DNA from: Moniliella sp. 'wahieum'
Lineage: Eukaryota; Basidiomycota; Moniliellomycetes; Moniliellales; Moniliellaceae
Assembly: GCA_003971905.1 (NCBI GenBank)
Contig: RSEE01000223.1
Span: 1 to 32,394, forward strand
Length of the DNA stretch: 32,394 nucleotides
Reading direction: 5' to 3'
The position numbers were made by a program, and so were the translations under genes. The notes under the pieces are model-generated. The model searched no databases and was not told the origin of the DNA. It saw only the letters and a list, made by a program, of their open reading frames with translations. Positions 1-32,394 of this stretch are shown piece by piece; within the stretch, counting starts at the first letter, position 1, and each line of letters opens with the position of its first letter.

Positions 1-617
1 AAGCTCATCCCAATGCAGGCCACCACGCCTTGGCAGATTTGGCCTCTGGGTGGGGAGCTGGGTCCAGGTTGCTGACCATCTCTCAGAACGTGGACGATCT
101 GTGTGAACGCGCCAACCACCCTCGGGCCTCCCTGCTGAAGCTGCATGGCGATATTATGACCGTTCGCTGCACCTCTCTTCATTGTGATTACGAAAAGCAA
201 GACTTGACCCACCCCTTGACCCCTGCGTTGGGACGAGTACCACCACTCAGCGAGCAGTCGGCGGGCGAGCCCGATCAGCCCACGATTCCAGTCTGCGACC
301 TGCCTCGTTGCCCCAAATGTGCTTCTCTTCTGCGTCCAGGGGTTGTGTGGTTCGGAGAGCAGCTGCCCCACGACGCACTTGAGCAGACCGAACGCTTCTT
401 TGAAAAGGGTGTGGACCTGCTACTAGCCATTGGTATGTCAGCTTCAGTATATCCGGCCGCTGGTTTTATCGATCAAGTTGAGGAGGCCGGGGGGCGGGTG
501 GCTGTTTTCAACCCCGACCCATCGGCGGGGCGTGACTCCCATTTTGATGGATGGCACTTCCAAGGGGATGCTACTGATTGGCTTCCCCGCGTTCTAGCTC
601 CTTTCTTAAAGCAATAA
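1..617 (+). CDS. SIRT5-type sirtuin, C-terminal part (residues 76-280), stop at 615-617
   Basis: Continuation of the sirtuin that begins at 32169. The frame is open from base 3, with bases 1-2 completing codon 76. Numbering the joined protein: the NAD/substrate motif SQNVDDL is at about 103-109, the catalytic His is H124 in LHGD, and zinc ligands are C132, C137, C179 and C182. The class III signature LRPGVVWFGE spans 186-195. The joined length of 280 aa is typical for SIRT5-like proteins. The last residues (PRVLAPFLKQ) match a normal family end. The frame has no stops or shifts, so the gene looks functional. Known family role: removal of acyl groups from metabolic enzymes, giving nicotinamide and O-acyl-ADP-ribose. 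The exact acyl specificity is inference. Confidence 0.93.
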   Translation, partial: AHPNAGHHALADLASGWGAGSRLLTISQNVDDLCERANHPRASLLKLHGDIMTVRCTSLHCDYEKQDLTHPLTPALGRVPPLSEQSAGEPDQPTIPVCDLPRCPKCASLLRPGVVWFGEQLPHDALEQTERFFEKGVDLLLAIGMSASVYPAAGFIDQVEEAGGRVAVFNPDPSAGRDSHFDGWHFQGDATDWLPRVLAPFLKQ

Positions 618-1081
618 GAAAGATACAAGAATCTTGTGGAGGCGCAACAGATAAAATAGTAAAGCATGCCAATGGTACAGAAGGAGAGGCATATGTTTCT
701 TCTCGATGCGGTTCCTTTTACTTATGTTCCCCTTTCCTCCTCCCGCGCGGCATGTGTACCATCCTTTTCAGGTTGCCCTGGCCCTCCGGTTTTAACGTGT
801 TTTCGATAAAATCGACGTTCCCAATCCTAACACTGATGTGTGGCATCTAATACTTCTGCAACAGGGATCGGGCATTATGATGCTTCCTTTGCTGTCAAAT
901 TTCGGCTCTCTGGGGTGCACGAGCAATCAGCAGCAAGCGAACAATGTAGTAGCCAGCCAAGACCACGCCGGGTTGCATGCCGGAAGCTGCAAGGGTATCG
1001 GGTATGAGGCTCACGGGAAAAAACAATCAAAGGTCGCAGTCGCTGATGGCAGTTTGGAGGGAGATCCTGATAGGGAAGTCG
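618..1081. other. intergenic, no supported gene
   Basis: Region between the sirtuin stop and the predicted 3' end of the PH-domain gene on the opposite strand. Only short open frames without recognisable motifs are present. The two genes converge here, so it should hold both 3' ends. I see no repeat or RNA gene. Confidence 0.5.
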
Positions 1082-2867
1082 TCAGTCTCGGTCAAACACG
1101 CGAAGTGTAAAAGGCGTAGGATACGCACAACCAGCCATGAAGGTCAGTCTCTGTTCTGGAAAGGAGCAAATACGAATTGGCTGACGTGAAAAGCGACAAT
1201 ACCGCAGGAACCTAACCAAGACAGGGGGTCAGTCTCCGTGTGCAAGGGGTGGTCCAAAGGAAAGGAAACGTACTTGACACACAACCGGCCAAGCTCGCTA
1301 CTGATCTCGACCGTCGAGTTGGCGTCAATGCGCACAGCGCCTTCCAACACTCGGCGGCGCGGGTTCGCCTCATTAAAGAAGAGTAAGTGCGGCCCGAACA
1401 GAACGGTCCATAGACGGGGCCAGGGATCGATCTCAGGACGAGATGCATTGGTGGGACGACGGGGAGGGTGCCCGTTCGCTGCTCGGACTGGATCCGTGCA
1501 AATGCGCAGCCAGCCGCTTCGTCTGTTTGCCCCAGCCGAGGTGGACATCCGCGCCCCCGCCACAGCGGAGGCAAGGAAGGTGTTGACTGGGCCGACCAAG
1601 ATCGTCGTCTGTAGTGTCGGCTCCTTCTGTCCAATCTTCGAGGCAGGCGCGCCGTTCTCACCAAGGGGCACGGAGTGGGGAGTCCGTTGAGGTTGATAAT
1701 TGAACTGCACCAATGTTAGCTAGGTTTCGGCATAGCGAGCACAACTTACTTTGCCCATCCGGTCATACTCGGTGGCGCGACAAGCACTTTGCCACAAGGC
1801 CACAACCCGCTCTATCGACATGGGTTGAGATCGAGGTGGGTTTACGGGAGAGAGTCGTGGGTCGTCCGACGTTAAGGTATGGTCCGTTGAGCTCGGCGGC
1901 GTATCTTGCCCCACGAAGCTCGGCACCAGAGTCGGCCGATATCGGTGCAGTAGATGTCGGGCGAGAGCTTTCGGATTGCCATGGATCAGGAGCGGCCCAA
2001 GGGTCATTCGTATCCAGGTCATCAATTTGACCGGGGCCAGTTGACATGGTGGTCGAGTTGGCCCACACCTCCAACGGAGAGGGTTCGGCTGGGGTGAAGG
2101 CCGAAGGTTGTCTTGCCATTTTGCAACTCGGGAGATGTAGCAGTCCCAGGAGAAGAAGGGGGGGCGGCTGCAGGGAAGGTACGAGCATCTAAGAGAACAC
2201 GGGTGGCCTCCACGTCCGCACGGAGGATTTGCTTGCGCGTACTGTCCGAGTACGCACCAAGGAGAGAAAGGCTTCGTGGCCGCCACACGCGGACCGGCCC
2301 TGGCGACGATCCAGCCACCTCCGAGATGATCGGTAAGGAAACAGTATTTTTTGCAGAAGTGGAGGCCGGGCTGTCGACGAACTGATCCGATGCCTGCACC
2401 AGTTGGACGTCAAACAGTTCCGTCACAGTTGTGACGGGTTCAGGGGCTTGTCCGACCCGACGGGGCACCGGCGCGTGGCGGGCCCTGCGGAGGCGCCGAG
2501 GGCGGAGCACTGGCGCGCGGCGGGCCCTGTGGAGGAGCCGAGGGCGGAGCACCGGTCCGCACGGGCGGGGGCGCTGCGTTCGAGAGCGGCGGGTACTGGC
2601 GATGGCGCGGAGGGTGCGACATGGTATCTTCAGCCCAACCTCGGGGCAGAAGGCAGAGGTGGAGGTGGAGGTGGAGGGGAGGTGGAGGTTCAGATGGATG
2701 CTGCGGGCCGTGGGGGCGGGGGGTGACATGGAGCGATGCATGATGCTCGCAATGGCCCCAGAGCAGCCCCAGTGCCGACACTGGCCCCGCGCCTTCACGC
2801 TGGTGAGCGACGAAGCAACGGGACGGGTGACCCCCACACTGCCCTTGTCCGTGTCTACGTCATGCAC
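1082..2867 (-). pseudogene. proline-rich PH-domain protein gene, reading frame broken
   Basis: Reads leftward. A pleckstrin-homology domain is recognisable at about 1270-1560: GWLRI, then WPRLWTVLFGPHLLFFNE, then an acidic-basic strand pattern. PH domains bind phosphoinositides or proteins at membranes. Upstream lie Ser/Thr/Pro-rich disordered segments, including a tandem APPSAPPQGPPRA-type repeat at about 2480-2560. Two good introns are visible: 1705-1749 (GTAAGT...GCAG, 45 bp) and 1212-1273 (GTACGT...TTAG, 62 bp), the latter leading to a stop at 1082-1084. The plausible protein changes frame near 2440, near 2030 and near 1900 with no splice sites to explain it, so the gene is either decayed or the sequence has length errors there. 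The start codon and full exon set are uncertain, and I cannot name the protein. Confidence 0.45.
2656..2692. repeat. GGAGGT/GAGGTG hexanucleotide microsatellite
   Basis: An imperfect GAGGTG run lies inside the Pro/Ser-rich part of the broken PH-domain gene. Read on the minus strand it gives a low-complexity His/Leu/Pro stretch. Confidence 0.7.
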
Positions 2868-2889
2868 GGGCTACGTGGAGGGAGAATAG

Positions 2890-3518
2890 GGTTGCACTGA
2901 TTGGTGTGTCGGATGCTCAGCGGGTCTGACGCGTGACGCGACACCCAACACGCAACACGATTGCCACTCACTGAGCGGGCGTCCCGCACCAACGTAACCC
3001 GTTTGGGACGAAGGGCACGCCTCCAGCGTTCATTTCAGTTGGACACGTGGCCTCCGCCTGCCACCGCCTCCCGCTGTACATTTCAATTCCTGCGCCAGTG
3101 TTCCGCCTCCAAGCTCCAAGTCCGCCACGCCTGTAAGGGGTTCTTGTGGCCCGGAAATAAGGGCGGCGGCGGAGGCTCGGGCGACCTCGGCATGGGGGTT
3201 TAGCCAGTCGGCCAGCCTCGGCGGGGCTGCATCGGCACTGGCCCTCTGTGGGGGTTCGGCGGCCAGTGTCCCTTTTGTCCGCAGTGCTGTAGTGCCAGTA
3301 ATGTGGTGAGGAGTGGTGAGATCTGAGAAGTGGTGATTGACTACACTGACATTGGAAAGTTAGAGAAAACTTGAAGCTGCAGTTCATCTCGGCCTTTGCG
3401 ACCCAGTGATCGAAGAGCGCAGATTGCCTTACGTCCGCCCCCCGATAGCATATTAACACACGAGTTGGGCGAAAGGATTCGGGCCAAGCAACCCGCTGCC
3501 TTTTTCCTTTGCGCCATC
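2890..3518. other. intergenic between divergent PH-domain and oxidoreductase genes
   Basis: The two flanking genes point away from each other, so promoters for both are expected here. The stretch just before the ATG at 3519 is pyrimidine-rich, as in fungal 5' leaders. I see no repeat family or RNA gene. Confidence 0.4.
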
Positions 3519-4601
3519 ATGTCCACTACTCTTCCCTCCACCGCTACTGCGTGGCGTGTGCATAAGGCGGGCTTGCCGCCTGTGACGATGCAAAAAGAAG
3601 AGGTGCCGCTCCCCAAGCCGGGCAAGGGCCAGATCCTAGTCGAGGTCCGCGCCAGCTCGATCAACCCAGTCGACTGGAAGCTTACTGCTGTCGCGCCAGC
3701 TTTCTTGCAAACCTGGCCCCGTACGCTGGGTAGCGACTTTGCTGGCATTGTTGCCGATCACGGCCCCCCTGAGTGAAGAGCAGAAGAAGACCTTGCCTAT
3801 TGGCGCTCGCGTGTGCGGGCTCAATGATGCGGGTGACGTGGCATTTACGAAGCTGCCAGGCACGATTGCGACCTATACATGCTCCAATGCAACCTGCGTT
3901 GCGCCCCTACCGGAGCGCCTATCCTTTTCCCAGGGTGCCGCGCTCCCTCTTACCTCGCTTACTGCCCTCAAGCTCTCGTCTTACGTCAAGGCCGGCGACC
4001 GCGTCCTGGTCCTGGGCGGTAGCACCAGTGTCGGCCTCATCCTCATTCAGATCCTCCGCTTCCTTGGGGCCAAGTCATCATCACTGCCAGCGCTTCGGGG
4101 GAAAAAATTAAGGTGGTCAAGTCGCTGGGCGCAGACGAAGTGCTGGATTATCGTGCGGTTTCGCTCCCCACTGAGCTGGCCCAGTCCCATGCCACCAACA
4201 GCACCGAAGCTTTCGACGTTGTGCTTGATTGCGTTGGAGACTTAAGCATTTTATACGCGTCGGACAAGTTCCTCAAAAAGGACGGGGTCTATTGTAACAT
4301 CGGGGCAACGGACCTGCTGCCAGGCCAGAGTCTCGGAGCAGTGTTAAAGTTCTTGTGGAGTCGGGCGCGCCTGGTGCTACTACTGCCTCGATTTTTGTCG
4401 GGTGTGCCAAGGACATACAAGGAAGAGATGATTGACAAACTCCAGATGCCGGTCCTGGGCGCCAAGTACATCACTGCTGACGCCGCTACGTCGATCAAGC
4501 CCGTAATTGATTCGGAGTTTGCGTTTGACGAGGCCAAGGACGCATACCAGCGTCTCCTGACCAACCGTGCCTTGGGAAAAATCGTGATCAACGCGCCCTA
4601 G
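3519..4601 (+). pseudogene. medium-chain dehydrogenase/reductase (zinc-type alcohol dehydrogenase-like / quinone oxidoreductase), two frame breaks
   Basis: NAD(P)H-dependent oxidoreductase of the MDR superfamily, substrate unknown. The ATG at 3519 (MSTTLPSTATAW) follows a pyrimidine-rich leader. The GroES-like part contains SSINPVDWKL and LGSDFAGIV. The Rossmann part contains GDRVLVLGGSTSVGL (about 3992-4036) followed by a frame that reads QVIITASGEKIKVVKSLGAD only after a shift. The C-terminus ends with LGKIVINAP at 4601. Frame break 1 is at the C6 run 3764-3769, where one base too many leads to a stop six bases later. Break 2 is at 4070-4071, where one C is missing. With those two bases corrected the protein would be about 360 aa, normal for the family. 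The catalytic zinc ligands of true alcohol dehydrogenases are not evident, which fits the quinone-oxidoreductase-like branch. The breaks are either recent decay or sequencing length errors. Confidence 0.85.
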
Positions 4602-6061
4602 CGTGTCAAGTATGACCGGGGCGTGTATACGTGAATGGAATATTGTGCTGTGCGGCCGATGATCCCTAATCGATAATCGTTGATCATTACAAGATGTGGT
4701 TTTACAAGAAGAAAATCAACATGGGTGGCCAGGCCCAAGGCTTCGCCTGTTGGGTTCTCAAATTCGGTAGAAGCGCGCACTTGATGCAGTTACTATATAC
4801 GACACAGTTTGCCCCCACTTTGCGTGTTGACAATGATGTGCACACGGGGATAGGGATAAGCGTTACAATTGATAAGGTAGGTCTTCCCAAGAGGCCCCCG
4901 TACTCAATCTGTACTACTCAGTGCCAGTGTAATAATTTACGAGGAAGTGCTATCGGATGATATTCTTAGTGCCTTGGCAGCCTTCGCTTGCTTCTGTTGG
5001 GGGGGTAGTGCTAGGCTTCCCCTGCACCCACCCTCAGTGGATCGGTGACGCTCTCGCTTAGCCGGTCGAAAGAGTTCCGCTCGCAGGCCGCACACGCCCT
5101 GCTCGCTCCATCTCCCTTCTCGCCCAAACCCGAAACTACCGTGAATCGTCCTTCACCTAAGGGATTGTACCCCATCAACCTGGGTGAGAGCCCCCTGGCA
5201 GGGCCCAGGGTCGTCGTATCACGTTACATGGGTCGAGCCCACCACCTCTGGTCCACCGATTATCCTTGCTCCAACCCTTCCCTTGTTCCACCGATCACCT
5301 TTTCCACCCCCTCCCCCCTCTTTTTGTTCCACAGGCCCAATTGCTCTCCACATCTCCGCCTTGTTCCACCACTCCGCCTGTTGTGCTATCGCGGGTACTC
5401 TTTGCATCACTGCTCCCCTTTGAGCCAGTAGTGAAGTCCCCATAGGATGGCAGGCATGAAATAACACACCCATCCACCCTATCGAGCTTAAACGCTGTAG
5501 ATCATTGGAGGATGATCCGAACCGAGAGCTAGGGGCAGGGCAGAGACGCGTCGGGTGGTCATCCGTCTTGCAAAATACGCATTGTGGGCAGTCGGCAGCC
5601 TTTTGTGACCAGGGCGAGGGCATGACGGTATAACTCTCGGTGTGGATTGGAGGGGCACTGTGCGCGAGTGTGGTCGTTGATGCGACAATGTGGGGGCACC
5701 GCCAGTGAGCACGGATAGGGGGCATTTTAAGGTAGTGGAGGGACGCGTCGACGCGACTCTGTCATATGCCCGATCGTTGGCGTAGCCAGCCCCACCCACC
5801 TCACGTGCAGGTCGGCGGGCAAAAGGGTTGGCATTTTCTTTTGCACCCTCCGATATAGAAATACGAATATCATCGAATAGCACTTCCTCGTTATTCATTG
5901 CTCTCATATGTTGTCACGTGGAGATACCACTTTTTCATTTCTCCGCGCTACCTCCACTAGCTCCACTTCTCCCAATTGAGTTAACATGCATGACATGCAT
6001 AACACGGGCAAGCAGGACGCGGCGGGTGTATTAGCTGGTTATACGCGCAGCACAAAGGCGC
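4602..6061. other. gene-poor stretch with pyrimidine-rich TTGTTCCACC repeats
   Basis: No convincing gene apart from the weak zinc-knuckle frame annotated separately. Between 5250 and 5390 a pyrimidine-rich segment repeats TTGTTCCAC-like motifs about four times, at roughly 40-bp spacing. Two canonical CACGTG E-boxes lie nearby (about 5802 and 5915), without a gene I can link to them. Confidence 0.4.
5219..5725 (-). CDS. uncertain open frame with one CCHC zinc-knuckle motif
   Basis: A 168-codon frame on the minus strand. At 5540-5581 it encodes CVFCKTDDHPTRLC, an exact C-x2-C-x4-H-x4-C zinc knuckle as found in retroelement Gag proteins and some RNA-binding proteins. Nothing else in the frame is recognisable. 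Its C-terminal half comes from the pyrimidine-rich low-complexity DNA and reads as Gly/Trp/Lys repeats. It could be a fragment of a Gag-like or zinc-knuckle gene, or a chance match. No reverse transcriptase, integrase or LTR is visible nearby. Confidence 0.25.
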   Translation of the reverse strand: MPPIRAHWRCPHIVASTTTLAHSAPPIHTESYTVMPSPWSQKAADCPQCVFCKTDDHPTRLCPAPSSRFGSSSNDLQRLSSIGWMGVLFHACHPMGTSLLAQRGAVMQRVPAIAQQAEWWNKAEMWRAIGPVEQKEGGGGGKGDRWNKGRVGARIIGGPEVVGSTHVT

Positions 6062-6085
6062 CCAGAGCGTTTCTTTTTGTCCCAG
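6062..6085 (+). repeat. repeat family A, short variant end
   Basis: This 24-bp piece reads GAGCGTTTCTTTTTGTCCCAGCC and matches the variant end of family A seen at 21901-21942. It lies immediately in front of the oppositely oriented copy at 6101. Confidence 0.5.
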
Positions 6086-6100
6086 CCGTACTTCTTGAAT

Positions 6101-6333
6101 TCATATCATTGACAGAGCTTAAGGCTGGGACAGGGGGAACGCTACGTCTAAACCGAACCGTTCATCTTGCGGGGGTTACTTGGAAGCGCCACTAAGGTCA
6201 AGGAACCAGGGGATCGCCAGGATATCAGGACCCTCCGGCTCTCGCCATCCGGTCCCGTACCCTAGGAAGCGCGTGTGGACACGGAGGAACGTGGTTGACA
6301 TCCGAGCGAGGAACCATTTCCACTGAGACTTAG
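6101..6333 (-). repeat. interspersed repeat family A, longest uninterrupted copy
   Basis: Starts ATTCATATCATTGACAGAG, then CTTAAGGCTGGGACAGGGGG, and runs to about 6333. Its reverse complement aligns base for base, with scattered mismatches, to 20652-20935, and its first 70 bp align to 10442-10517, 20071-20130, 21154-21210 and 25856-25945. It has no coding capacity, so it is probably a non-autonomous or decayed transposable element. Element class is unknown because only one end is consistently present. Confidence 0.8.
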
Positions 6334-6586
6334 TAGCCAACTCCTTCCAATGCGCAAACAACTTGCCCGCCGTCTTGGTGCCGTAGTATCCTCGCGTACT
6401 TCTGTAAATATTTAAATGAATGCGAAACGCAACATTAGGGTTTCTTTTGAACCGTGCCGCGCGTCTACACCATCGATCATCGATCGACTCCGTCTCGTCC
6501 ACCTCTTAGATACAGGATGAATATTGCCGTGTGCCACAAGAGCCACAGCAGGCCACAGCCTGTGGAGTGGTACGTTCATTCCAGCT

Positions 6587-6626
6587 TGAAGCTTGAAGCT
6601 TGAAGCTTTTATTGAACGTTGAAGAC
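6587..6626. repeat. heptad tract (TGAAGCT)n then TGAACGT
   Basis: TGA occurs at 6587, 6594 and 6601 and again at 6613 and 6620. Units are TGAAGCT three times, then TGAACGT. On the other strand each unit is TCA plus a palindromic tetramer (AGCT, ACGT). Confidence 0.85.
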
Positions 6627-6916
6627 GTTAAAGAGCTTAAAAAGCTTTTGAAGATCTAATTCGGCGCCACCTTGAGTACTCAACTGCTGAGTCTGAGTGC
6701 ATCAGATCTCACTGAGATTTCAGAGGCAGTGATGCGTGATGGTTGTGGATATTGTGAATCATTCTCTCTCGCTTTCTCATTAAAATTTCGAATCCTCAAA
6801 AATAAGTGCAGCACACAGTATACATACGTGGACTCTTCGACTCAGACAGAGTACTCAGTACTCGGACTGTGGCAAGCACAGTGCCCCTGCGTAAGCGCCA
6901 CTTGTGGCGCCTGGGG

Positions 6917-6958
6917 TCATCGGTCACCGGTCACTTATCGATTATCGATTATCGATGA
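6917..6958. repeat. heptad tract, six units in exact 7-base phase
   Basis: Units start at 6917, 6924, 6931, 6938, 6945 and 6952: TCATCGG, TCACCGG, TCACTTA, TCGATTA twice, TCGATGA. The sequence changes between units but the 7-base spacing does not. Confidence 0.85.
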
Positions 6959-7192
6959 TCTCGATGATCGATGATCTCTGAGCGCGAGCCTCACAGGCCT
7001 CAGGTCCTCAGATTGGGTGTCGGCCACTTTTGTGAAGATTGTGCCTCCAGCCCCCTCCGGCCTTAGGCCTAAGGGCCTCAGGAATAACTCGGTACACAAA
7101 TGCTCTCCGGTACTCACGATATGTACTTTCGTCACTTTCAGGGTTTGGCATGGTTTGGGGGTTTAACGTTTAAGCTTCATTAAGCGCTCAAG

Positions 7193-7203
7193 TGTATATA
7201 AAG
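7193..7203 (+). promoter_or_regulatory. TATA box of the membrane-protein gene
   Basis: TGTATATAAAGG lies about 100 bp before the ATG at 7302 and is followed by a pyrimidine-rich leader, a normal fungal core promoter layout. Confidence 0.5.
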
Positions 7204-7301
7204 GTCGAGGTAACGTTCGCGCGTTCATGCTGGCATTTTCTCATTTTCTCTACCTCTCCCCCCACATCACGACCAACACTATCGCCATCACCTTTGCGCA
7301 T

Positions 7302-8570
7302 ATGGCTGACAACCCACCTACCCATATGATGCAGCATGCTGCGCCCGGAGTGAGGGTGCATTTGCCCCCATCTGTTCCAACTTCGCTATTGGAACAGGAC
7401 TTGGTGCGGGGTATGTACCTAGGTGCTGCTCTTGCTTTTCTGCTGTGGGAGTACGCCATTACCCCTTCTCCATTTCTCATCCTATCCTCCTTCATTTTTA
7501 CGCCTGCACCTCTGCTGACACATAACCTCCTCTGGAAGCATACTTATCACATTTCCAGCTGAGATCCGCATGCACAGGAAGCGGGGTTTCAAATGGCTTG
7601 TCACTCCAGCTTTTCTTATCGCGCGCTACACAAGCCCAATTTGTATCGGACTCTACATTCATGCCCTTCGGAAACCTTCTTGGACAACCCAAGAGTGTTA
7701 CCACGTGGGCGTGCGTCCGTCTTTCTTGGCAGCATTATTACCTCCTCCGCCTCCTTCATTTTTTCCGTACGAACTTGGGCCATGTGGCACTGCAATCGCT
7801 ATATCATGATAGTCGTTGCGCTCCTTTGGTTGGCCCAATTTATGATCAATATTATCCTCAACAACTGGTTTCGCCCGTATGCGCTTAACCTGGTGTGTGT
7901 GTCTACGCGATGCCAGGACACGAAATTCCGTGGGCATACTTTATCTGCAACATTGTCTTCGACACACTCATCACTTCGCTTGCCTTTGCCTCTTTCTTGT
8001 TTGACGCACACGGGCGGCGGGTTAATATTACCAGGCAAACTGTGTTGACCAAGGTCGTGCAGCAACGTCTTATGTCTGACGGTTTGATCTACTTTTTCTG
8101 TGCCCTCTCCATCAACTTGCTCAACGCGCTCTTTTTCAGCAAGCGCTGGACTTTTTCCAACATTAATGGGTCCATCGCCAATGCTTTTACTGCCATTTGT
8201 GCATATCGTCTCGTGCTGCTGAAGCTGGGTGGTGGCCTGGACTTGAAAGGTATTGCGGGATACCCCTCCCTCTCAAGCGGTAGTGGGAAACAAGAAGGCA
8301 CAGCAACGATCCAAATATACTATCACCCAAGCCGTGGTTGATCAAGTCGAGATGGAGAACACATCTGCAATCAAAGAGTGTGAGCGCAGCTCCATAACCC
8401 ATTTTTCGACCCTCCCCTCCCCTCCCAACCGTGTGGGCAACGTCCCCTTCACGGTCGAGACACAGGTGATGCAGATGCACGATCCTTCATCCGTGACCCT
8501 AACCCCGCTCCCCTCTCGTTCACTGCATCAGAGCAAAACAGCAGATGAAGAGGCGAGGGTGGGATTCTGA
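7302..8570 (+). pseudogene. multi-pass membrane protein of a basidiomycete 7-TM-like family, several frame breaks
   Basis: The ATG at 7302 gives MADNPPTHMM and leads into a hydrophobic helix (GMYLGAALAFLLWEY). Further membrane segments follow: WLVTPAFLIARYTSPICIGL, SASFIFSVRTWAMW, YIMIVVALLWLAQFMINIIL, YFICNIVFDTLITSLAFASF and LIYFFCALSINLLNALFF, ending with a hydrophilic tail to 8570. The layout resembles the DUF6533-type proteins abundant in Basidiomycota, whose function is unknown. The frame changes at about 7700-7712, in the GT dinucleotide run at 7893-7902, and between 8253 and 8341. An intron is likely near 7451-7573 (donor GTACGC), but the family pattern argues that some of this stretch should be coding, so that exon border is unsure. 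Splicing cannot explain all the shifts. Confidence 0.65.
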
Positions 8571-9400
8571 GTCCCCTTATTCTCTGTTCAGGATTGCTTC
8601 ATTTTCTTCATGGAGGGAAAGGCACTGGCATAGATTATTATTCTTTATCATCACCACGGACCATCAGATGCTCTTCAAATATTTGGTTGTCTCTCCCTCT
8701 TGTGTATGTGAAGGCAGCCCGTACATGATATATGATATATAGCCAGCTTGGCCAACCCACCAACCATCTGGAAAGTCATTATGTCCTTATAGCTCAAATG
8801 CTCAGCATTTGATCTCTGTCTCCTCACCGGCTTTTGTTCTTTCCAATGGCCAAACATCAATCATAGCTAATCGAAAATGCTGGTTACAAGGTTCGGGATA
8901 GATATGTGAGTACTACGTACAAAATTCAAGGTGGGCAAGGCCCACAAGATTGTGCGCAAGAAATTTCGATTAGCTATTGATTAGGCTCCCTTCATCTCAT
9001 TAATCATTGGATGTGAAAGAAATTGACCAGAGCTTTTGACGTACGGGATGGCACGGACTTCTGGTCAAGGTTCTTTAGGGCCCTCCTCAAGCTCCACAGG
9101 TCAATAGGTGTGTGGTCCGATGTTTCCTCGTTTTTCTGTGTGTTCCTTGTTTCGCAGCCTCTGGCCCGAAATAGGGGTTGGCTTCTTTTAACATCCCTGT
9201 GCAGAGGTGCCGTTGGGTGGCCTATACCAATACCCCGCACGTATAACGGCGCGCTGAAGCGTTTTGATGTCTTCCAAACATGTTAGGTCAGGATACTCTA
9301 ACCGCCGGATTCTCTCGACAATCCGTTAATCGGTAATGGATGGATGTGTTAATGGATAAACTCGATAACCCCAACACCTGTTTTGCGGCGAGAAACAATA
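8571..9400. other. intergenic, no supported gene
   Basis: No motif-bearing frame, repeat family or RNA gene could be recognised here. Confidence 0.4.
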
Positions 9401-9466
9401 TCCGTCAAAAATTCATCGAGCATCGAGCATCGACGCCATCGACCGCAGCGACTATGCATCGACGTA

Positions 9467-9548
9467 TCATGCATCATGCAGAAAAGCGTTCAATGCGTGT
9501 CAGCGCTCAGCCTGAGCGCTGCTCAGCATGAGCTCAGCGCTCCACGCT
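9467..9548. repeat. heptad tract TCATGCA x2 and TCAGCGC cluster
   Basis: TCATGCA units lie at 9467 and 9474, then TCAGCGC at 9500, followed by TCA at 9507 and further GCGCTCA/TGAGCGC pieces in both orientations. Confidence 0.75.
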
Positions 9549-9740
9549 CCACTGCATCAACGTCTAAACGTGTGCGTCTAACGTACCTAACCCTAAACCC
9601 TAAGCACAACAGCCAATTCTTTCACACACCTGTGCCTAGCAGTATGTACCTTCCTATGCACATGTATTTTGGATGTTGGCCCGAGATAGAAGGTAGATAT
9701 TTGCCATCGGGCGGATCTCAAACATTGTGGCGCCCGCTCG

Positions 9741-9797
9741 TCACGCGTCACGCGTCAGCGCGTCACACATCATGCATCATGCATCATTAATCATTCG
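9741..9797. repeat. heptad tract with mixed palindromic cores
   Basis: TCA occurs at 9741, 9748, 9755, 9763, 9770, 9777, 9784 and 9791, so all but one spacing is 7. The cores between them change along the tract: CGCG, CGCG, GCGCG, CACA, TGCA, TGCA, TTAA. Confidence 0.9.
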
Positions 9798-9993
9798 TCC
9801 CTTGGAGCTTCAAATCATATATTTTCCAGGGATATTTTCCGGGTATATAAAGAGCAAAAACGCCCGGACGGCAGGATGTGTGCGCAAGGCGTAATTGTGG
9901 CGTTACGCGGTACTAGAGAAGTTACTAGTTACTGTGCCCCGTCGAAACTCCGCCACCTGCTCCGCACCGCGCAGTTCGAAAGAGAGGTCGTTG

Positions 9994-20070: not shown

Positions 20071-20130
20071 AACGGTTCGGTTTAGACGTAGCGTTCCCCC
20101 TGTCCCAGCCTTAAGCTCTGTCAATGGAAT
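20071..20130 (+). repeat. repeat family A, terminal fragment
   Basis: Sixty bases from AACGGTTCGGTTTAGACG to GCTCTGTCAATGGAAT, nearly identical to the corresponding end of the 6101-6333 copy in the opposite orientation. Confidence 0.85.
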
Positions 20131-23010: not shown

Positions 23011-23640
23011 CGTCAGATTCAAATCTCACAGGCCCCAGGCTCATCCTGAGTATCTAGCCCACTCTCTGAGCCCACTTGCCACTGTCATCGACGTCATCGA
23101 TCATCGTCCACGGTTCATGCGTTCACTGCAACAATGGGGGGAGAGAACGGTTCGATATATCGTTGCAGGTCCGACTGGAGCCCCGCGGGGGTGTAGGAAC
23201 GGTGACGAAGTCCTGTTTCTCCTGCTAGTACTAACTATTCGACAGATGGGAGGCGAAAAGGAGGGGAATCGGAGCACTTACGCCGGTTTTTTGATGCGCA
23301 GTACAGACAGGGCCCAAAATGTGGTCTGAGATCTGAGGTCTAAGAAGATCAAAACCTCTTCACAAGCTCATGAGGCCTATTAAGGTCCAAGAAGGCGTAA
23401 GGCCTAAGCTCTTAGGTCCAACAGATCTAGAGTCTCAAACGTTTCAAGTATTATAGGGGTTGTATCTGGCCAGACCGTTCTTGTATTAAAGCAGTGCCCC
23501 TCGTCGTGTTGGAAAGCATCTCACCAACACAGATTGCGACCTCTACTACTTCTACCTTTCACTCTTATCAGCATCTTTTTCCATCTCCATCACATCTTAT
23601 TAACTCTCTCCGTTATCGCGACGGCTCTTATTTGCCTGCA

Positions 23641-25518
23641 ATGGTCCTCAAGAAGCAATCAAACACCCGCGCGGACATCTTTCCTGGTAAGGAACAATAC
23701 ACTACAGCCGACGCTGACCACGAGGCAGCTGCAACATCCGAGGCGGAGACACATACAGCATCTCCCAGTATCGATCATGGTTCTGTAACCCACCTTAACC
23801 AGGATATCCTCAAAGAGGTATCGGAGGGCAAGATCATCCTCGTCGACTGGGATGGGCCTGACGACCCCATGAACCCCATGAACTGGTCGACGAGGAAAAA
23901 ATGGACCAACACCAGTCTCCTGTGCGCCATGTGCCTCTTCATCGGTTTGGCAACCGCCGCCTATGGTTCCGGTGTCTCAAGAATGTGCAAGGAGCTGAAT
24001 GCTGGTACGTCTATGCGCCACTATTTTTTGGGGAACAATGCTAACCATGAGATGGATTACACACAGGAATTGAACTTGGACGTGTGGGTTTTACCGTGTT
24101 CAACGTAGCCTTTGCCCTGGTACGTATTTCACCACTATACCCGCTTTCGCTTTGATGTGGGGAAATCCGTTGCTGATTTTTTTCTCCTTCGTAGGTTCCT
24201 CCTATTCTGGGGCCCGTGTCCGAGTTTGTTGGGGCGCAACCCGTCTACTTGATCTGCTACGCTGGGTTTGTTATTTGGTTCGTGGCTCTCTTTGAGGCGC
24301 AAAATATTTGGACAATTGTTATTGGCCGCTTCTTTTCGGGTTGTTTTGGAGCAGCCGGTGTGACGATCATTCCGGGAACACTCGCTTCAATCTGGCGTCC
24401 CAACGAGATCGGGCTACCTGTCGCGCTCTTCACCCTTGTCGCCGTGTTGGGCACAGCTGCTTCGCCTCTATATGCTGGATACATTGATGCGCGCCACAAT
24501 CTGGGCTGGCGCGCCATCGAGTGGATTCAAATGGCCATCAATGGCACCGCACTGATTCTAGAGTGCATCTTCCTGCGTGAGCCCCGTGGCAGTGCTCTCC
24601 TTTCGCGCCGAGCCAAGAAGCTGCGCAAGGAGACAGGCGATAACCGTTATCGCTCTCGAGATGAATTGGAAACGCCAAGTTTGAAGGAACTTCTCAAGGT
24701 CTCTACGACTCGTGCGGCGGTAATGATTGTGAAGGAACCAGTTGTCCTCTTCTTCTCCCTCTGGTTGTCATACATGTGGAGTTTGATCTTTGCCCTCTTC
24801 AGTGCCATTCCAATTGCCTTCTCCACAAAGCGTGGCTGGGGTGAAGGAAACACCGGTCTAGCTTACATTGGTCCAATCATTGGCACCTTCATTGGCTGGG
24901 TGTTCCTTTTCCACGACTCTTACCTCTACCAGAAATCTGCCGACGCACACGGTGGGCATGCCATACCCGAGGTGCGCCTGTACTACGGCGCCGCAGGGGG
25001 CATTGTATCCACTATTGGCATGTTCATTTTCCTTTACGGCCCCCTACACGTGGGTGCATTGGATCGCCCCCGAAATCGGCCTCGCTGTACTTCTGATCGG
25101 AATTGTGTGGGTTTTCCAATCGGTGCAGGCATATCTGACTGATGCGTACGGGGAGTCGAGTGCCTCAGCCATTGGTGCTCAAGGCTTCATTCGTAACCTA
25201 ATGGCCGCAAGCTTCCCCTTGTTTACCACCCAGATGTTCAACAACATGGGCTTTCAGTACGCTGGTCTACTGCTCAGTCTTCTGATCGCTATTGCCATCC
25301 CCCTTCCTTTCATCTTGATCTGGAAGGGCGCGTCCATCCGTGCTCGCTCGCCATACGCTGCCGTCCAGACCGAGGCCACGTTGGAAGGCCCAGTTAGTGG
25401 CACTGGACGTGCAGAGATCGATCGCCAGGATGCAAAGGGGGCCGAATCTCCAGCTGCCACTGACATCGAAAGCCATCCCACACAGGAGAAGGTGGCCGAA
25501 TCACCCATTCAGCCTTAG
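23641..25518 (+). pseudogene. MFS drug/polyamine-type (DHA1) transporter, one frame break
   Basis: Proton-coupled exporter family of the plasma membrane, typically 12 membrane segments. The ATG at 23641 opens a hydrophilic N-terminus ending DWDGPDDPMNPMNWSTRKKW, a DHA1 hallmark before the first helix. Introns are 24005-24066 (GTACGT...CACAG) and 24120-24194 (GTACGT...GTAG), both in correct phase and giving IELGRVGFTVFNVAFAL then VPPILGPVSEFVG. Later motifs include GRFFSGCFGAAG, GWRAIEW, and after the break VHWIAPEIG and QAYLTDAYG. The frame shifts at the C5 run 25040-25044; one C fewer would restore about 579 aa, the usual length. Without that the protein stops at 25142 and lacks its last membrane segments. 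It is a very recent pseudogene, an allele with a length change, or a sequence error. Confidence 0.88.
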
Positions 25519-26836: not shown

Positions 26837-29623
26837 ATGGATTCGCCCGCGAGCAGCGTGCTGCGAGAGCGGCGCCGGCCCCTCAAGGACTCCGTGCCCT
26901 CCACTACCACAGACTCTTCTCCTGTTGGTGACATCTCTACATCCACTTCCAAGATGCGGACAAATCCCGCTCCCTCTTCACGACGGGCAGAGTTTGTCCT
27001 GTTTGCCTCGGTTCTGCTCGTGACCGCCGCCGTTCGCTTCTACCGACTCGGCCAACCAAGCAGCGTTGTGTATGTCTAATGTCTTCAGCCCAGCATGCTA
27101 TCTGGGTTGTGCCTCTGACGCGGATTCTCTCTCCTTAGATTTGACGAACTTCATTTTGGTGGGTTTGCTAGCAAGTACATCAACCGCGTCTTCTTCATGG
27201 ACGTACATCCGCCCTTGGCCAAGCTGTCGATCGCTGCTGCAGGTTGGCTGGCTGGGTTTGACGGCTCTTTCGACTTTTCCGAAATTGGCCGCGAATACCT
27301 CTATGGGCCGGACACGCCCGTACCATATCTCGAGATGCGCCTTCTCTGCGCCGTATTGGGCTACCTGACGCTTCCCGTGGCCTATTTCACTTTGCGTTCT
27401 TTGGGGCTGCGCGCAGCAACCAGCGCAGTGGGCACATTCATGCTTGGGCTTGACAACGCGTTGTCCACCCAGAGCCGATTGATCCTTCTTGACTCTCATC
27501 TTATATTCTTCACCGCTACGGCGGTCTTGGCCTACACCAAGTTTTCGCTTCTCAACGGTACGAGACCATTTACGAGAGCCTGGTGGCTTTGGCTCATTGC
27601 TACCGGCACCAGCCTGGGGTTAGTCGTCAGCGTCAAGTATGTGGGACTGTTCACGATCGCAACCATTGGCATTTTCACTGTGCTTCAGTTGTGGAACATC
27701 CTTGTCGATCCGAAGGTCGGACTAGTTCTGTTCGTTAAGCACTTTGTTGCTCGCGCCCTGTTCTTGATTCTGTGGCCTGCGTCCATTTACACGTTCTGGT
27801 TTGCTGTCCATCTGCGTGTCATCAACCGCTCTGGTTCGCAGGATAATTTTATGCCATCTGAGTTCCAGCACAGTTTACTCGGCCATGAGATGCTTCCTAC
27901 ATTCGCCGATGTGGCCTTTGGGTCGACCGTTACGATCCGCCATCTGAATACCCAAGGGGGGTATCTGCATTCTCACCCACACGCCTACGAGACCGGTTCC
28001 AAGCAACAACAGATCACGTTGTATCCTCACTCGGATGAGAACAACGAATGGCTTGTCATTCGTGCACCTCCGCTCGACGCCGAGGTGCCCACAGATGAAG
28101 ATGGTGTTCCTCTTACACTCGAAGGACCCCATGAGGTGGAACAACATCTCGACCAGCTGGAATGGCTTCGCAACGGCGACATTATCCGCCTAACCCATCG
28201 CACCTCGGATAAGCGCTTGCACTCGCATGACATTCGTCCGCCCATGACCGACGCTGATTACCAAAACGAGGTTTCGGCGTATGGGTTTACCAACTTTGCT
28301 GGTGACGGGAACGACAATTGGATTGTCGAGATCGACACTTCTCTTAGCCACGACAAGGAATCGCGCGAGAGGGTGCGCGCCCTTCGCACTGTATTCCGTT
28401 TGCCCCCCTTTTCGGGGTGCTACCTGTTCTCCCACCCTGTCGAGCTCCCCGAATGGGCCTTTTCTCAACAGGAGGTGACCTGCAACTCATCTCCCACCCG
28501 ACCCAATACGTTATGGTTCATTGAAACCAATGTTCATCCTATGTTGGAAGAGGAACCCACGGCGGTCAAGGTCAACTATCGCACTCCCTCCTTTTGGCAA
28601 AAGTTTATCGAGTTGCAAAAGGTAATGTTCAAGACAAATTCGGGTTTGACCGAGCGTCATGTGTACGACTCGCGCCCGTCCCAGTGGCCGCTGTTGCGCC
28701 GTGGGATAAACTTTTGGAACAAGGAAAGCCGACAAGTGTATTTGTTGGGCAATCCATTTGTCTGGTGGGCTTCTGCGGCAGCGACCTTGATATATTTGGG
28801 TACGCGCGTGTTGCTCATGCTACGAAGCAAGCGTGGCTACCCCGAATTGACCCGCCGCAAGGTTGTCTTTTACGATACCATCCTTGCGTTCCTCGTTTGC
28901 GGTTGGGCTTTGCACTACCTCCCTTTCTTCTTGATGGAGCGGCAGCTCTTTCTCCATCACTACCTCCCAGCGTTGTATTTCAGCGTTCTGATTTTTGCCA
29001 CAGTGCTGGACGCTGTGATGGGGGCACTACCCTCTCGTTATGCCCGTTGGGGCTTGGTCTCCCTCGTCGTACTTCTTACCACGGCGGCATGGTGGCGCAT
29101 CGCACCGTTGAGCTATGGATCACAATGGACCCTGGAGCAATGCGAGGCCGCGCGACTCCGTCAACCCTGGGACTTGGATTGCGTCAATTTCCCGTTTCAC
29201 CTCAGTGAGTATGCATCGCTCCCACCGGGCATCAAGACGGAGCCCAGTGCCCAGGAGATTGAAGCTGAGGGGGCGAAGCGCCGCCAGTCTAAGGCCGATG
29301 AGGCTGCCCGGCTGGTAGAGGAGCAAGACGCATTTATGTGGTACCGCAACCTCATCCACGACACGGGCATGCCCCCGGCCGATGACGATCCAGTGATTGA
29401 GACGTTGGAGGAATACCAAGCCTTCCAACAAGAGCATCCTGACTTCCATCCGTATGTGGTGTACCACATGCAGGCAAGCGGTGGTGGCCCCAGTTCGACG
29501 TCGGAAGAGGCCCATATCACTGGGCCCGACGATGAACCGTACAAAGTCAAGGTCGAGCCTGGTCGACATGCATTCGAGAATCCGCCCGCGGTGGCAGTGC
29601 AGAGTGGACCCCCACGCTACTAA
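26837..29623 (+). CDS. PMT1: dolichyl-phosphate-mannose--protein mannosyltransferase, PMT1 subfamily
   Basis: ER membrane enzyme that transfers mannose from dolichol-phosphate-mannose to Ser/Thr of secretory proteins, usually as a Pmt1-Pmt2 heterodimer. Spliced from 26837-27069 and 27139-29623 (intron 69 bp, GTATGT...TTAG) to give 905 aa; yeast Pmt1 is 817 aa. The start has a strong context (GCCGCCATGG). The catalytic Asp-Glu motif is D80-E81 in FDELHFGGFASKYI, right after the splice junction, followed by FMDVHPPLAKL. Three MIR repeats span about 330-530, with GGYLHSH, GSKQQQITLYPH and RLHSHDIRPP. The C-terminal membrane part contains VYLLGNPFVWW and RQLFLHHYLPA. These stretches fit the Pmt1 branch better than Pmt2 or Pmt4. 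The frame is intact despite a C6 run near 28402. It is tail-to-tail with SEC63, 113 bp away. Confidence 0.95.
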
Positions 29624-29736: not shown

Positions 29737-31848
29737 CTAGTCAGAGTCAGAATCGGTGTCTGTGTCCTCGTCTTCGCTTGAGCTCCCGCCCGAGGCATCC
29801 TCGTCCTCCTCGCCTTCATCCTCCGACCCGGCATCGCCATGGACAGGGGATCGCTTCACATTTTCCCCACGCATCAATGCCAATTGGCCCGCCAGCGTAT
29901 CTTCATCCGCCTCTGAAATATCGTCGTCGAAGTCATCCTCCGCATCGAGCACAGCGGGGTCTTCCACAGTCAGTCGCAACGCCTGTTCAGCGTCCGATCC
30001 AAGGAATGAATCAGAGCGCACGACTACATTAAATGTGTAGACACCAGCCGAAGGAGGAGCCGAGAAGGAGAGGGTGAATGTGCGTGTTGTAGTCCCCACA
30101 TCAGTTACTCGCGTAGGCTGGACCATGACGCGGTCTACCTTCGAGTCGCCAACGAAGACAACCCAATGGGGTTTTCGCTCGCCGATGAGGTAAGGGGCGC
30201 GAGCCGAGCCGATGGGGACAGAGCCAGCATCCTCCGGGCCGGCATCCCCATCGTCTACCTCAGGATGGGGGACAGTCTCTTTGGTCTCAGGACCGGTTTC
30301 TTTGGTGACCAAGATGTCCTTCGTCCGTCGGGCATCACCATCAACGCCATATTTAAGTAATTTAGGGAAATCGCCAGGCGGGGAAAGGCGGAGTTGGATG
30401 ACGAGCTGTACCAATGCCCCTGCAGTAACCAGCCGTTCACCTGCGACCTTGAACTGAGCACCTAGCAGCTGGATCCGGGGCCAGGCCTTGGCCACAGACA
30501 TCAAGCTAGCATACTCCTCCTCGTTCAGCCCCTTCTTGCCGTCGGTAAGGAGTGCATGCCGCTCATTCTCGGGCATGGCAACGAGGCCTTGAACACCCCA
30601 GTCAGCCCGGGCATTGGAAGCGCGCACCAGCTTCTCAGCAACTGGCAACGTCATGTTGGGCAGCTGTAGTAGTCCTGCTACAGCACGAGGCGCTTGGATG
30701 GGCACGGCCTGCACAATGCACTGTTGCAGCGCCAGCACATTCTCCGTTTGTTGGAACCAGTTGTGCCCAAGGCTAATTGACAACATCGACTGGATCAAGG
30801 GCAGTGCAGTAGAAGCAGCACGGTACTTGGCCTTTTCAAGCTCCGGACCAGAGGGTTTAATGCGCAACAAGTAAGCGTTAAGCAAAACCAGAGCACGTCG
30901 CACACTTTCCGAACGGAATGAAGAGGGTAAGGCGGCATCGGGGCCAAAATGCTTCAGTCCCTCACGTACCTGGCGCTCGAGAGCATCCAGTGCGGCTTGG
31001 CCAGTGTACGGCTTGCCTGATTTGGCAGAACGCTCAGCAAGCAAATCCAGACCTGGTTGGGAGAATTCCTCCGAGATGGCCAAAAGAGAGAGAAGGCGCG
31101 AGGCAGGCGTGTCGTCACGCAGGTTTTGGAAATAGGCTTGGGCAGTGGCATTGTACACGCCATCCTTGGTGCGTGACCGCGACCCATACCACCACCTGCC
31201 TACAAGCATGGGCAAAAGCAGGCCAAACACCAGGCCATAGGCACCCAAGACCCAAACATTGTTGTGGCTCTCAATGACCCAGGTCGGCAAGGCGATGCCC
31301 ATACTCATTTCCTGCCTCCCGTCGGGATGGCCATAAAGCTCGAAATTCTTGCGGATGGTCTCGTCAGTCAACGCCTTGTAGGCCTTGGTGAGCTCAATAA
31401 AGTGTGCCTCCGCATCAGAAGCAGTCTCGTTTGGGCCGAGCACAAGCTTATCGGGGTGGAACTTGAGACTGAGCTTGCGGTAGTGCTTGCGGACTTGCTT
31501 CTCGGTGGCCGAGGCACCAATACCGAGGATGGAGAAAGGGTCGTAGATTTTGTTGGGCGACGAGGCAGTGGTGGTGGAGAGTTTGTGGGCGAGGAGGCCC
31601 ACAGCCGCCCATCCGAGCAGAATACAGAGGGTGCGGAGACTGATGCGCGGGCCAAGACGCGTGCTGAGTGCGGCGACGGGGGGGATCTTCTGGCCAGGGG
31701 CGTCGAACGCGCCCTGGTGGGTGGAGCGGGTGCGGCGGCGGAGCGAAAGGCCGGACCACGTAAGCGGGACGAGCACGAGACAGAGGACGCTGATGACGAA
31801 GGTGAGGAACTGCGTCCCCTCGTCGTCGTACTTGTAGGACCCAGCCAT
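29737..31848 (-). CDS. SEC63: Sec63, J-domain subunit of the ER translocon
   Basis: Recruits and activates the lumenal Hsp70 BiP/Kar2 at the Sec61 channel for post-translational import. One uninterrupted frame of 703 aa (yeast 663). Membrane segments are at about 12-32, 71-90 and 197-218. The lumenal J domain is at 103-175 with the essential HPD at 131-133 (KFHPDK). The Sec63/Brl domain follows to about 630, and the C-terminus is very acidic (DEDTDTDSDSD), the part that binds Sec62 in yeast. The start at 31848 places the first helix correctly. No frame break. It is divergent from the sirtuin and convergent with PMT1; the PMT1 and SEC63 products act in the same compartment. Confidence 0.95.
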   Translation of the reverse strand: MAGSYKYDDEGTQFLTFVISVLCLVLVPLTWSGLSLRRRTRSTHQGAFDAPGQKIPPVAALSTRLGPRISLRTLCILLGWAAVGLLAHKLSTTTASSPNKIYDPFSILGIGASATEKQVRKHYRKLSLKFHPDKLVLGPNETASDAEAHFIELTKAYKALTDETIRKNFELYGHPDGRQEMSMGIALPTWVIESHNNVWVLGAYGLVFGLLLPMLVGRWWYGSRSRTKDGVYNATAQAYFQNLRDDTPASRLLSLLAISEEFSQPGLDLLAERSAKSGKPYTGQAALDALERQVREGLKHFGPDAALPSSFRSESVRRALVLLNAYLLRIKPSGPELEKAKYRAASTALPLIQSMLSISLGHNWFQQTENVLALQQCIVQAVPIQAPRAVAGLLQLPNMTLPVAEKLVRASNARADWGVQGLVAMPENERHALLTDGKKGLNEEEYASLMSVAKAWPRIQLLGAQFKVAGERLVTAGALVQLVIQLRLSPPGDFPKLLKYGVDGDARRTKDILVTKETGPETKETVPHPEVDDGDAGPEDAGSVPIGSARAPYLIGERKPHWVVFVGDSKVDRVMVQPTRVTDVGTTTRTFTLSFSAPPSAGVYTFNVVVRSDSFLGSDAEQALRLTVEDPAVLDAEDDFDDDISEADEDTLAGQLALMRGENVKRSPVHGDAGSEDEGEEDEDASGGSSSEDEDTDTDSDSD

Positions 31849-32168
31849 GGCGGGCGGGAGGCGGTGGTGGGGCGAGCGGGAGCAGGCGCGGGTGCGACGT
31901 GGAAGAAGCAGCGGCGCGGAGATGCGTGACGTATGCGTGATGACGCTAGGGTTGTCTCTTGCTGTCTTCGGATCGAAGCGAGTTCAATGTTTCAACGTAC
32001 ACCGTTTGAATGTTCAACTTGGGCCTCCAGCGCTTCCGACGTCAGATGAAGCCTCAGATCCTCATAGATTGAAGATACGCAGGCGACACGACGCCCCAGG
32101 CGATCGCAGCCGCTGTCATCCGAGTTCATCTCCATCTCCCTTGCGCCACCCACAAACCCGCCCTGGAT
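31849..32168. promoter_or_regulatory. shared divergent promoter of SEC63 and the sirtuin
   Basis: 320 bp between two start codons pointing away from each other. It contains GCGTGACGTATGCGTGATGACGC (about 31923-31945) with a TGACGT CRE/ATF-like core, and a TTCAA/TTGAA-rich segment at 31982-32020 (TTCAACGT, TTTGAATGTTCAAC). No clear TATA box. Co-regulation of the two genes is an inference from the geometry. Confidence 0.6.
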
Positions 32169-32394
32169 ATGTCGTCCGACGTGGCCAGCTTCCAGGCGTA
32201 TATGGCGCAGTCGCGCCGGGTAGTTGCTTTGCTGGGGGCTGGACTGAGTGCATCCAGTGGCCTCGGCACCTTCCGCGGACCAGGAGGGGTGTGGCGCCAT
32301 CGCAGCGCCATGTCGCTCGCCTCACCTCAAGCCTTTGCCGCGGACCCGGGCCTGGTATGGTCCTTTTACTCTGCCCGGCGCGCGGCCGTGCTTC
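32169..32394 (+). CDS. SIRT5-type (class III) sirtuin, N-terminal 75 codons; continues at base 1
   Basis: NAD-dependent protein lysine deacylase, first part of the gene. The ATG at 32169 is followed directly by the Rossmann-fold motif GAGLSASSGLGTFRG (residues 23-37), so there is little room for a targeting peptide and a cytosolic or nuclear location is as likely as mitochondrial. The segment ends with residues 64-75. Residues Y67 and R70 form the Y-x-x-R pair that in SIRT5 binds the acid group of succinyl, malonyl or glutaryl lysine, so desuccinylase/demalonylase specificity is inferred. The open frame leaves the window after one base of codon 76; the next bases needed are found at position 1, in phase. 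The gene is head-to-head with SEC63, 320 bp away. No intron is seen. Confidence 0.93.
   Translation, partial: MSSDVASFQAYMAQSRRVVALLGAGLSASSGLGTFRGPGGVWRHRSAMSLASPQAFAADPGLVWSFYSARRAAVL

What the first reader, a model, noticed from the sequence alone, without database searches (positions are those of the whole stretch)
617..32169. Window closes on itself: one sirtuin spans the end/start junction, implying a 32,394-bp circle or tandem unit
The sirtuin frame leaves the right end after 75 codons plus one base; bases 1-2 complete codon 76 (Gln) and the frame continues to the stop at 617. Across the junction the protein reads FYSARRAAVLQAHPNAGHHA, which lines up without gap against the usual SIRT5-like helix, and the joined protein has exactly the normal set of domains and length (280 aa). 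A linear window cut at random would not show this. Either the DNA is an extrachromosomal circle, the locus is amplified as a head-to-tail array with this period, or the assembler closed a contig over a repeat. A circular DNA carrying PMT1, SEC63 and a deacylase in a fungus would be remarkable.
Basis: partly seen in the sequence, partly recalled or inferred. Interest (0 to 1): 0.9.

Follow-up and report, generated by a model that had tools for sequence, protein, structure and literature searches.

The report
Closed contig from duplicated fungal segment
This piece of fungal DNA does join end to end, but the sirtuin gene across its ends is in its normal chromosomal order; the unusual join lies elsewhere inside the piece and most likely marks a recent head-to-tail duplication on one of the fungus's two chromosome copies, though a free DNA circle is not excluded.

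Summary
The window is a whole contig (C223, 32,394 bp) of a 69.5-Mb, 223-contig assembly, and its ends abut exactly inside a 280-aa SIRT5-like sirtuin gene.

The 32394/1 join is ordinary, though. Contig C10 (other haplotype), 481,592-509,399, holds one linear copy that runs straight through it and starts and ends at window 2458. The novel joint is therefore 2458/2459, where two places 28 kb apart on C10 are fused head to tail with one shared base. In the assembly it was found only in C223.

C47 is the window's own haplotype: it carries window 9862-2459 with only indel noise, then normal right flank, and ends inside the unit. The left flank has no second-haplotype copy at four probes.

Best reading: a recent tandem duplication of a 32-kb multigene segment on one haplotype, collapsed to a closed contig. 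A free circle predicts the same contigs and cannot be excluded without reads. No repeat at the breakpoints explains a false join.

The parts
2458..2459 (.). Novel head-to-tail joint: the segment's left end (native order ...1..2458) fused to its right end (2459...), one shared base (C)
   Evidence: C10 alignment ends and restarts here; sequences on both sides; joint found only in C223
32169..32394 (+). Sirtuin (SIRT5-like, SIR2 domain), first 75 codons plus one base
   Evidence: runs on at window 1 as in C10
1..617 (+). Sirtuin, remainder to the stop codon
   Evidence: PF02146 on 3-617
2459..9862 (.). Stretch also present, same haplotype, at the end of C47 (C47:1-7412), where 2459 is joined to normal right flank
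   Evidence: 99.7% with no independent substitution
2461..2555 (+). G+C-rich minisatellite, 42-bp period, 2.3 copies, 3 bp from the joint
2420..2437 (.). Perfect inverted repeat, 8-bp arms, 2-bp loop, 21 bp from the joint
   Evidence: 3.2% of the window lies within 40 bp of such a repeat (20 of them), so only suggestive
3519..4601 (+). Zinc-type alcohol dehydrogenase / quinone oxidoreductase-like gene (start read by eye; frame broken by an indel)
   Evidence: PF13602 and PF00107 on 4023-4601; ORFs; indel at 4077 judged an error of this contig
11052..13938 (-). 6-phosphofructokinase gene in pieces (introns or frame errors not resolved)
   Evidence: PF00365 on 11052-11789 and 13300-13938 and on 11576-12283
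14988..20185 (.). 5.2-kb insertion absent from C10; ends CACAGCGGATCA...TGATCCGCTGTG, TA target duplication (read by eye): DNA transposon of a dispersed family
   Evidence: gap in C10 alignment; ends; 112 matching pieces in the genome, itself included
23431..25518 (+). Major facilitator transporter gene in several ORFs
   Evidence: PF07690 on 24195-25142; the flanking ORFs 23431-24108 and 24862-25518 had no Pfam match, so the limits are approximate
26837..29623 (+). PMT1-type protein O-mannosyltransferase (first exon read by eye)
   Evidence: PF02366, PF02815, PF16192 on 27119-29623; homologues
29737..31848 (-). SEC63 (DnaJ and Sec63 Brl domains)
   Evidence: PF00226, PF02889 on 29737-31983; first Met at 31848 by eye
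1..32394 (.). The closed unit as a whole: circularly permuted relative to the other haplotype's C10:481,592-509,399

Best explanation
The contig is the repeat unit of a recent head-to-tail (tandem) duplication of a 32.4-kb chromosomal segment on one haplotype of a fungus that carries two haplotypes about 3% apart. The segment runs, in native order, from window 2459 through 32394/1 to 2458 and carries an oxidoreductase, phosphofructokinase, an MFS transporter, PMT1, SEC63 and the sirtuin. Its two ends were joined with one shared base, most simply by end joining or template switching after breakage beside a G+C-rich minisatellite. Reads shorter than a unit could not place the copies, so the assembler collapsed them into one closed path (C223), cut it arbitrarily inside the sirtuin, and let the right-flank contig C47 run out 7.4 kb into the unit. 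Shown: the permutation, the joint, the shared haplotype with C47, the collinear other haplotype. Inferred: that the copies are chromosomal and in tandem, how the assembler acted, how the joint arose, and any dosage effect.
For: C10 carries one linear copy, collinear through 32394/1, whose ends both fall at window 2458. The joint was found only in C223. C47:1-7412 equals window 9862-2458 with 24 differing columns, 23 of them gaps and the one letter mismatch beside a gap; counted by eye as 14 events, C10 sides with C47 in 9, with the window in 3, undecided in 2, so this looks like consensus noise within one haplotype. C47 then continues collinearly into C10-like flank, so the chromosomal locus still exists on this haplotype. 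Window against C10 is 0.1-5.0% substitutions per kb where aligned. Exact closure without overlap suggests that the assembler followed a closed path. Breakpoint surroundings share no useful repeat.
Against: No contig was found that joins this haplotype's left flank to window 2458 (searches with window 1-700 and 800-2700), although a tandem array needs one; C10 stretches 350,001-352,500, 430,001-438,000, 470,001-478,000 and 480,001-481,590 have no second-haplotype partner. This needs an extra assumption: identical haplotypes collapsed into C10, loss of that stretch, or failure to assemble it. No read depth is available, so a copy number above one is not shown. C47's overlap with the unit could be the single chromosomal copy, with C223 a free circle.
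Confidence: 0.56

Rival explanations
1. The contig is a real extrachromosomal circle (eccDNA) of 32.4 kb, formed from one haplotype's segment by joining its ends, beside an intact single chromosomal copy. It would be kept by replication from origins inside the segment and by uneven segregation, perhaps under selection for gene dosage.
For: The contigs expected are the same: closed unit plus right-flank contig of the same haplotype. Exact closure. The joint has a one-base overlap, no long repeat. In yeast, a gene-bearing circle was present in up to 50% of cells under selection and preceded chromosomal amplification, and a 22.5-kb circle with a centromere and 7 genes was found (PMC7430651, passages seen).
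Against: Nothing in the sequence requires a free molecule. No depth and no circular-DNA enrichment at hand. An origin of replication or centromere in the unit was not looked for. Unselected circles are usually rare in bulk DNA (general knowledge), so one abundant enough to be assembled is less expected than a tandem duplication.
Confidence: 0.22
2. Assembly artefact: the locus is single copy on this haplotype, and one or a few chimeric reads or a graph error joined 2458 to 2459 and closed the contig.
For: The assembly has clear consensus noise; the joint lies at the edge of a minisatellite; C223 is the last-numbered contig of 223 and shorter than the three others whose lengths were shown (C10, C47, C56; the remaining lengths were not seen); the left-flank partner is missing, as if this part of the graph were poorly resolved.
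Against: Surroundings of the two breakpoints (2 kb each) share nothing better than 18 bp at 89% or 34 bp at 76%, so a repeat-induced false overlap is unlikely. A random ligation chimera would hardly pick two ends of one locus in head-to-tail order; foldbacks, the usual artefact, would be inverted (general knowledge).
Confidence: 0.17
3. Part of a larger rearrangement of this haplotype (overlaps with the first two readings, so the odds do not add to one): the chromosome lost or replaced the stretch left of the segment (somewhere between C10 272k and 481.6k) in the same event that made the closed unit, for instance break-induced replication from the other haplotype, or loss of a fragment with capture of the segment as array or ring.
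For: Second-haplotype sequence is present up to C10:271,866 (C56) and from the segment rightwards (C223, C47), but absent at four probes between; heterozygosity is still 2.7% in the 300 bases next to the joint (8 of 297), so it ends at or close to the breakpoint. C56 also shows an orientation change against C10 at about 250-272k.
Against: Four probes only (20.1 kb of about 210 kb); stretches missing from one haplotype are common in draft assemblies (general knowledge); C56:1-4000 has no match to the window.
Confidence: 0.12

Closest known systems
Tandem segmental duplications / copy-number variants in yeasts and other fungi (reviewed in PMC8150848; passages seen)
   Same: Head-to-tail join of a multigene segment, with intact flank on at least one side, on one haplotype
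   Different: Copy number, left boundary on the same haplotype and any phenotype are not shown here; no long flanking repeats at the joint
Gene-bearing eccDNA of yeast such as the HXT6/7 circle (PMC7430651; passages seen)
   Same: A chromosomal segment with genes whose ends are joined; proposed intermediate of chromosomal amplification
   Different: The HXT6/7 circle forms at a direct-repeat gene pair; here the joint has one shared base. No proof of a free circle here
eccDNAs of the rice blast fungus (PMC9694575; start of the abstract in a listing and three passages seen)
   Same: Circular DNA with genes in a filamentous fungus
   Different: That study used rolling-circle amplification (passage); here only an assembled contig is at hand
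SIRT5-like class III sirtuins (for the gene over the end/start join)
   Same: Length, SIR2 domain, catalytic and zinc residues, Tyr and Arg of the acyl pocket (which residues matter is recalled)
   Different: Nothing unusual in the protein; closest relative 80% identical, from an unnamed source

Membership tests
Chromosomal head-to-tail duplication (tandem array) | A joint fusing the segment's end to its own start in direct orientation | tested here: met
   2458/2459
Chromosomal head-to-tail duplication (tandem array) | Normal junction with right flank on the same haplotype | tested here: met
   C47:1-7412 then C10-like flank
Chromosomal head-to-tail duplication (tandem array) | Normal junction with left flank on the same haplotype | tested here: inconclusive
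   No such contig found; only C10 holds the left flank
Chromosomal head-to-tail duplication (tandem array) | Two or more copies of the unit per haplotype | not testable with these tools
   No reads or depth; the C47 overlap of 7.4 kb could be the same copy
Extrachromosomal circular DNA | Closed sequence of chromosomal origin with one non-chromosomal joint | tested here: met
Extrachromosomal circular DNA | Physically free, exonuclease-resistant circle | not testable with these tools
   needs DNA or raw reads
Extrachromosomal circular DNA | Replication origin or other means of maintenance | not tested
   no model for origins of this fungus
Fungal plasmid or virus-like circular replicon | Own replication genes, no chromosomal counterpart | tested here: not met
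   It has a chromosomal counterpart, C10, collinear apart from a transposon and small differences. The 18 ORFs scanned (of 61 listed) gave only ordinary nuclear families
SIRT5-like sirtuin | SIR2 domain, GAGxS, QNxD, catalytic His, four zinc cysteines, Tyr-x-x-Arg of the acyl pocket (motifs recalled) | tested here: met
   (G23-A24-G25, S27, Q104-N105-V106-D107, H124, C132, C137, C179, C182, Y67 and R70 invariant in 5 sequences)

The most novel reading that the evidence does not exclude
One haplotype of this smut-related fungus carries a stable 32-kb circle (or terminal array), abundant enough to be assembled, with phosphofructokinase, PMT1, SEC63 and a sirtuin, born in the same breakage that removed or overwrote some 130-210 kb of the chromosome directly to its left; that is, a natural excision-and-loss or break-induced-replication event caught in a two-haplotype fungus.
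Probability: 0.1. Interest if true: 0.65.

Novelty: new member of a known kind. Interest (0 to 1): 0.33.

Why it matters
If chromosomal, it is a young haplotype-specific dosage change of at least six genes, including a glycolytic enzyme, in a fungus with two diverged haplotypes, and an example of how assemblies turn tandem copies into 'circles'. If free, it would be a large gene-bearing circle in a basidiomycete. Either way the exact joint (2458/2459) makes the question testable with one PCR or existing reads, and shows that the obvious test at the contig ends would have misled.

Tried and rejected
Open frame over the ends as proof of closure: rejected as weak (555 of 3000 random joins as long). 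End overlap as a sign of an untrimmed circle: none. A repeat at both breakpoints causing a false join: searched 2 kb around each, best 18 bp at 89% and 34 bp at 76%; the C10 self-comparison at E 1e-15 shows no repeat pairing the two breakpoints. Plasmid or virus: not met; no Rfam or tRNA match. Consensus accuracy as a stand-in for read depth: considered and dropped, because PMT1 and SEC63 read open in C223 while C10 differs there by several indels per kb, yet over 2459-9862 C223 seems noisier than C47. A left-flank contig of the same haplotype: not found. Inverted repeat and minisatellite at the joint as the cause: suggestive only. Naming the fungus: the best named PMT1 matches are Ustilaginomycotina at 52-56%, so no species. 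Pfam on four ORFs of the transposon gave nothing. Telomere repeats at the ends of C10 and at the right end of C47: none of note. A look-up of the C10 sirtuin start by exact match failed and was replaced by tblastn. Papers: five searches; passages of three papers; no paper was read whole. I make no claim that this locus is absent from print.
Full report
What the window is. The window is the entire contig C223 (1-32,394) of an unnamed 69.49-Mb assembly of 223 contigs. Genes recognised by Pfam are ordinary nuclear ones: a zinc-type oxidoreductase, phosphofructokinase, an MFS transporter, PMT1, SEC63 and a sirtuin (18 ORFs scanned of 61 listed). No Rfam family or tRNA was found. The PMT1 protein is 81-82% identical to two proteins of unnamed source, then mostly 52-57% to the next ones, of which the named are Ustilaginomycotina such as Parajaminaea and Thecaphora. 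So the organism is probably a fungus related to the smuts, species unknown.

The observation. It is right in every detail: 75 codons and one base at the right end, Gln76 completed by bases 1-2, stop at 617, 280 aa. The protein aligns through the join to human SIRT5 (best E 6.9e-55) and, without a gap there, to close relatives of 284 and 280 aa. A contig length of 17,968 is given for both the closest PMT1 (P0001) and the closest sirtuin (P0121), which suggests the same neighbourhood in a relative, although this rests on the length only. Open frame alone would not have been proof: 555 of 3000 random joins from a 110-kb stretch of C10 were as open.

The join at the ends is native. Contig C10 (1,002,656 bp) holds a second copy. 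Reading C10 backwards, the alignment runs from window 2458 at C10:509,399 up to 32394 at C10:484,049, continues without a base lost at window 1 = C10:484,048, and ends at window 2458 = C10:481,592. So C10 has one linear copy, and the window is circularly permuted relative to it. The segment is 27,808 bp on C10; the window is longer mainly by a 5.2-kb insertion (14988-20185) with 12-bp inverted ends and a TA target duplication, one of a dispersed family with 112 matching pieces in the genome, itself included (only 40 of 1051 candidates were scored).

The joint. The abnormal sequence is ...CTTGTCCGACCC|GACGGGGCACC... at 2458/2459. The left part continues differently on C10 below 481,592, and the right part is preceded by different sequence on C10 above 509,399 and on C47. 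One C is shared. A search of the assembly with window 800-2700 found the whole joint only in C223; C10 gave the two halves apart and C47 the right half. Around the joint lie a 42-bp-period minisatellite (2461-2555) and an 8-bp-arm inverted repeat (2420-2437); only 3.2% of the window is within 40 bp of such an inverted repeat, which is suggestive and no more. The two 2-kb surroundings share nothing better than 18 bp at 89% or 34 bp at 76%, so no repeat explains a false overlap.

Haplotypes. Window against C10 differs by 0.1 to 5.0% substitutions per kb where aligned, lowest over PMT1-SEC63; C47 against C10 over the first 40 kb of C47 differs by 3.1% (1144 of 36,439 letters summed over BLAST pieces, repeats possibly counted twice). 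C47:1-7412 equals window 9862-2458: 24 columns differ, 23 of them gaps, and the one letter mismatch abuts a gap. Counted by eye, C10 sides with C47 in 9 of 14 events, with the window in 3, undecided in 2. So these look like consensus errors, and C223 and C47 are one haplotype. C47 then runs into the right flank in the order of C10. It ends inside the unit, as expected when an assembler meets unresolved copies (inference).

The missing left side. On the left of C10:481,592, four probes (480,001-481,590; 470,001-478,000; 430,001-438,000; 350,001-352,500) have no partner at haplotype level. The first matched nothing but itself. The others matched elsewhere at 70-79% over 500 bases or more, and at up to 100% only over short pieces (30 to 190 bases at 82-100%). 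Probes at 100,001 and 250,001 do have partners (C115, 95%; C56, 97%), and C56 begins at C10:267,897 (93%). Heterozygosity is still 8 of 297 in the last 300 bases before the joint. So the second haplotype is absent from the assembly from at or near the breakpoint leftwards for about 131 kb, as sampled by these probes. Either both haplotypes are identical there and collapsed, or one lacks it, or it was not assembled. I cannot decide, and this is the weakest point of the tandem reading.

Interpretation. Shown: a segment of one haplotype is closed on itself by a joint that does not exist on the other haplotype, while the right flank of the same haplotype is still attached to the segment. Inferred: the simplest physical structure is a tandem duplication on the chromosome, made by end joining or template switching, young because no independent substitution separates C223 from C47 in 7.4 kb. 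A free circle beside a single chromosomal copy predicts the same contigs. In yeast, circles of a locus can precede its chromosomal amplification (PMC7430651, passages), so the two are not even exclusive. A false join remains possible because there are no reads to inspect.

Verdict. As a tandem duplication this is a new example of a known kind; interest is modest unless reads show a free circle or a link with the missing left side.

Noticed in passing
C3 and C45 against C10 (probes at 250k, 350k, 430k, 474k, 510k) and window 29654-31866: A second pair of contigs, C3 and C45, matches the C10/C47 pair at these places at about 75-83%, in changed order (short pieces only at 268-272k; no match at C10 100k and 480k or to window 1-700 and 800-2700, bar one short repeat): an old segmental or whole-genome duplication or hybrid origin.
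   Followed up: partly
   Followed up: partly
C10:350,001-481,590: No second-haplotype partner at four probes: identical haplotypes, loss, or unassembled.
   Followed up: partly
window 14988-20185: Haplotype-specific DNA transposon, 12-bp terminal inverted repeats and TA target duplication, dispersed family; four of its ORFs have no Pfam match.
   Followed up: partly
window 32169-617 (sirtuin): Among the 120 listed relatives of the sirtuin I noticed only Ascomycota among the named ones (Dipodascopsis, Lipomyces and others), although PMT1 points to Ustilaginomycotina: patchy loss or transfer, not tested.
   Followed up: no
C10:483,439-484,272 (other haplotype's sirtuin): The C10 copy shows a changed start codon (Met to Ile) and frame shifts; the frame shifts look like consensus noise, the start codon may be real.
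   Followed up: no
C10:1,001,157-1,002,656: The end of C10 reads like large-subunit ribosomal RNA gene sequence (recognised from memory), so this chromosome arm may reach the rDNA.
   Followed up: no
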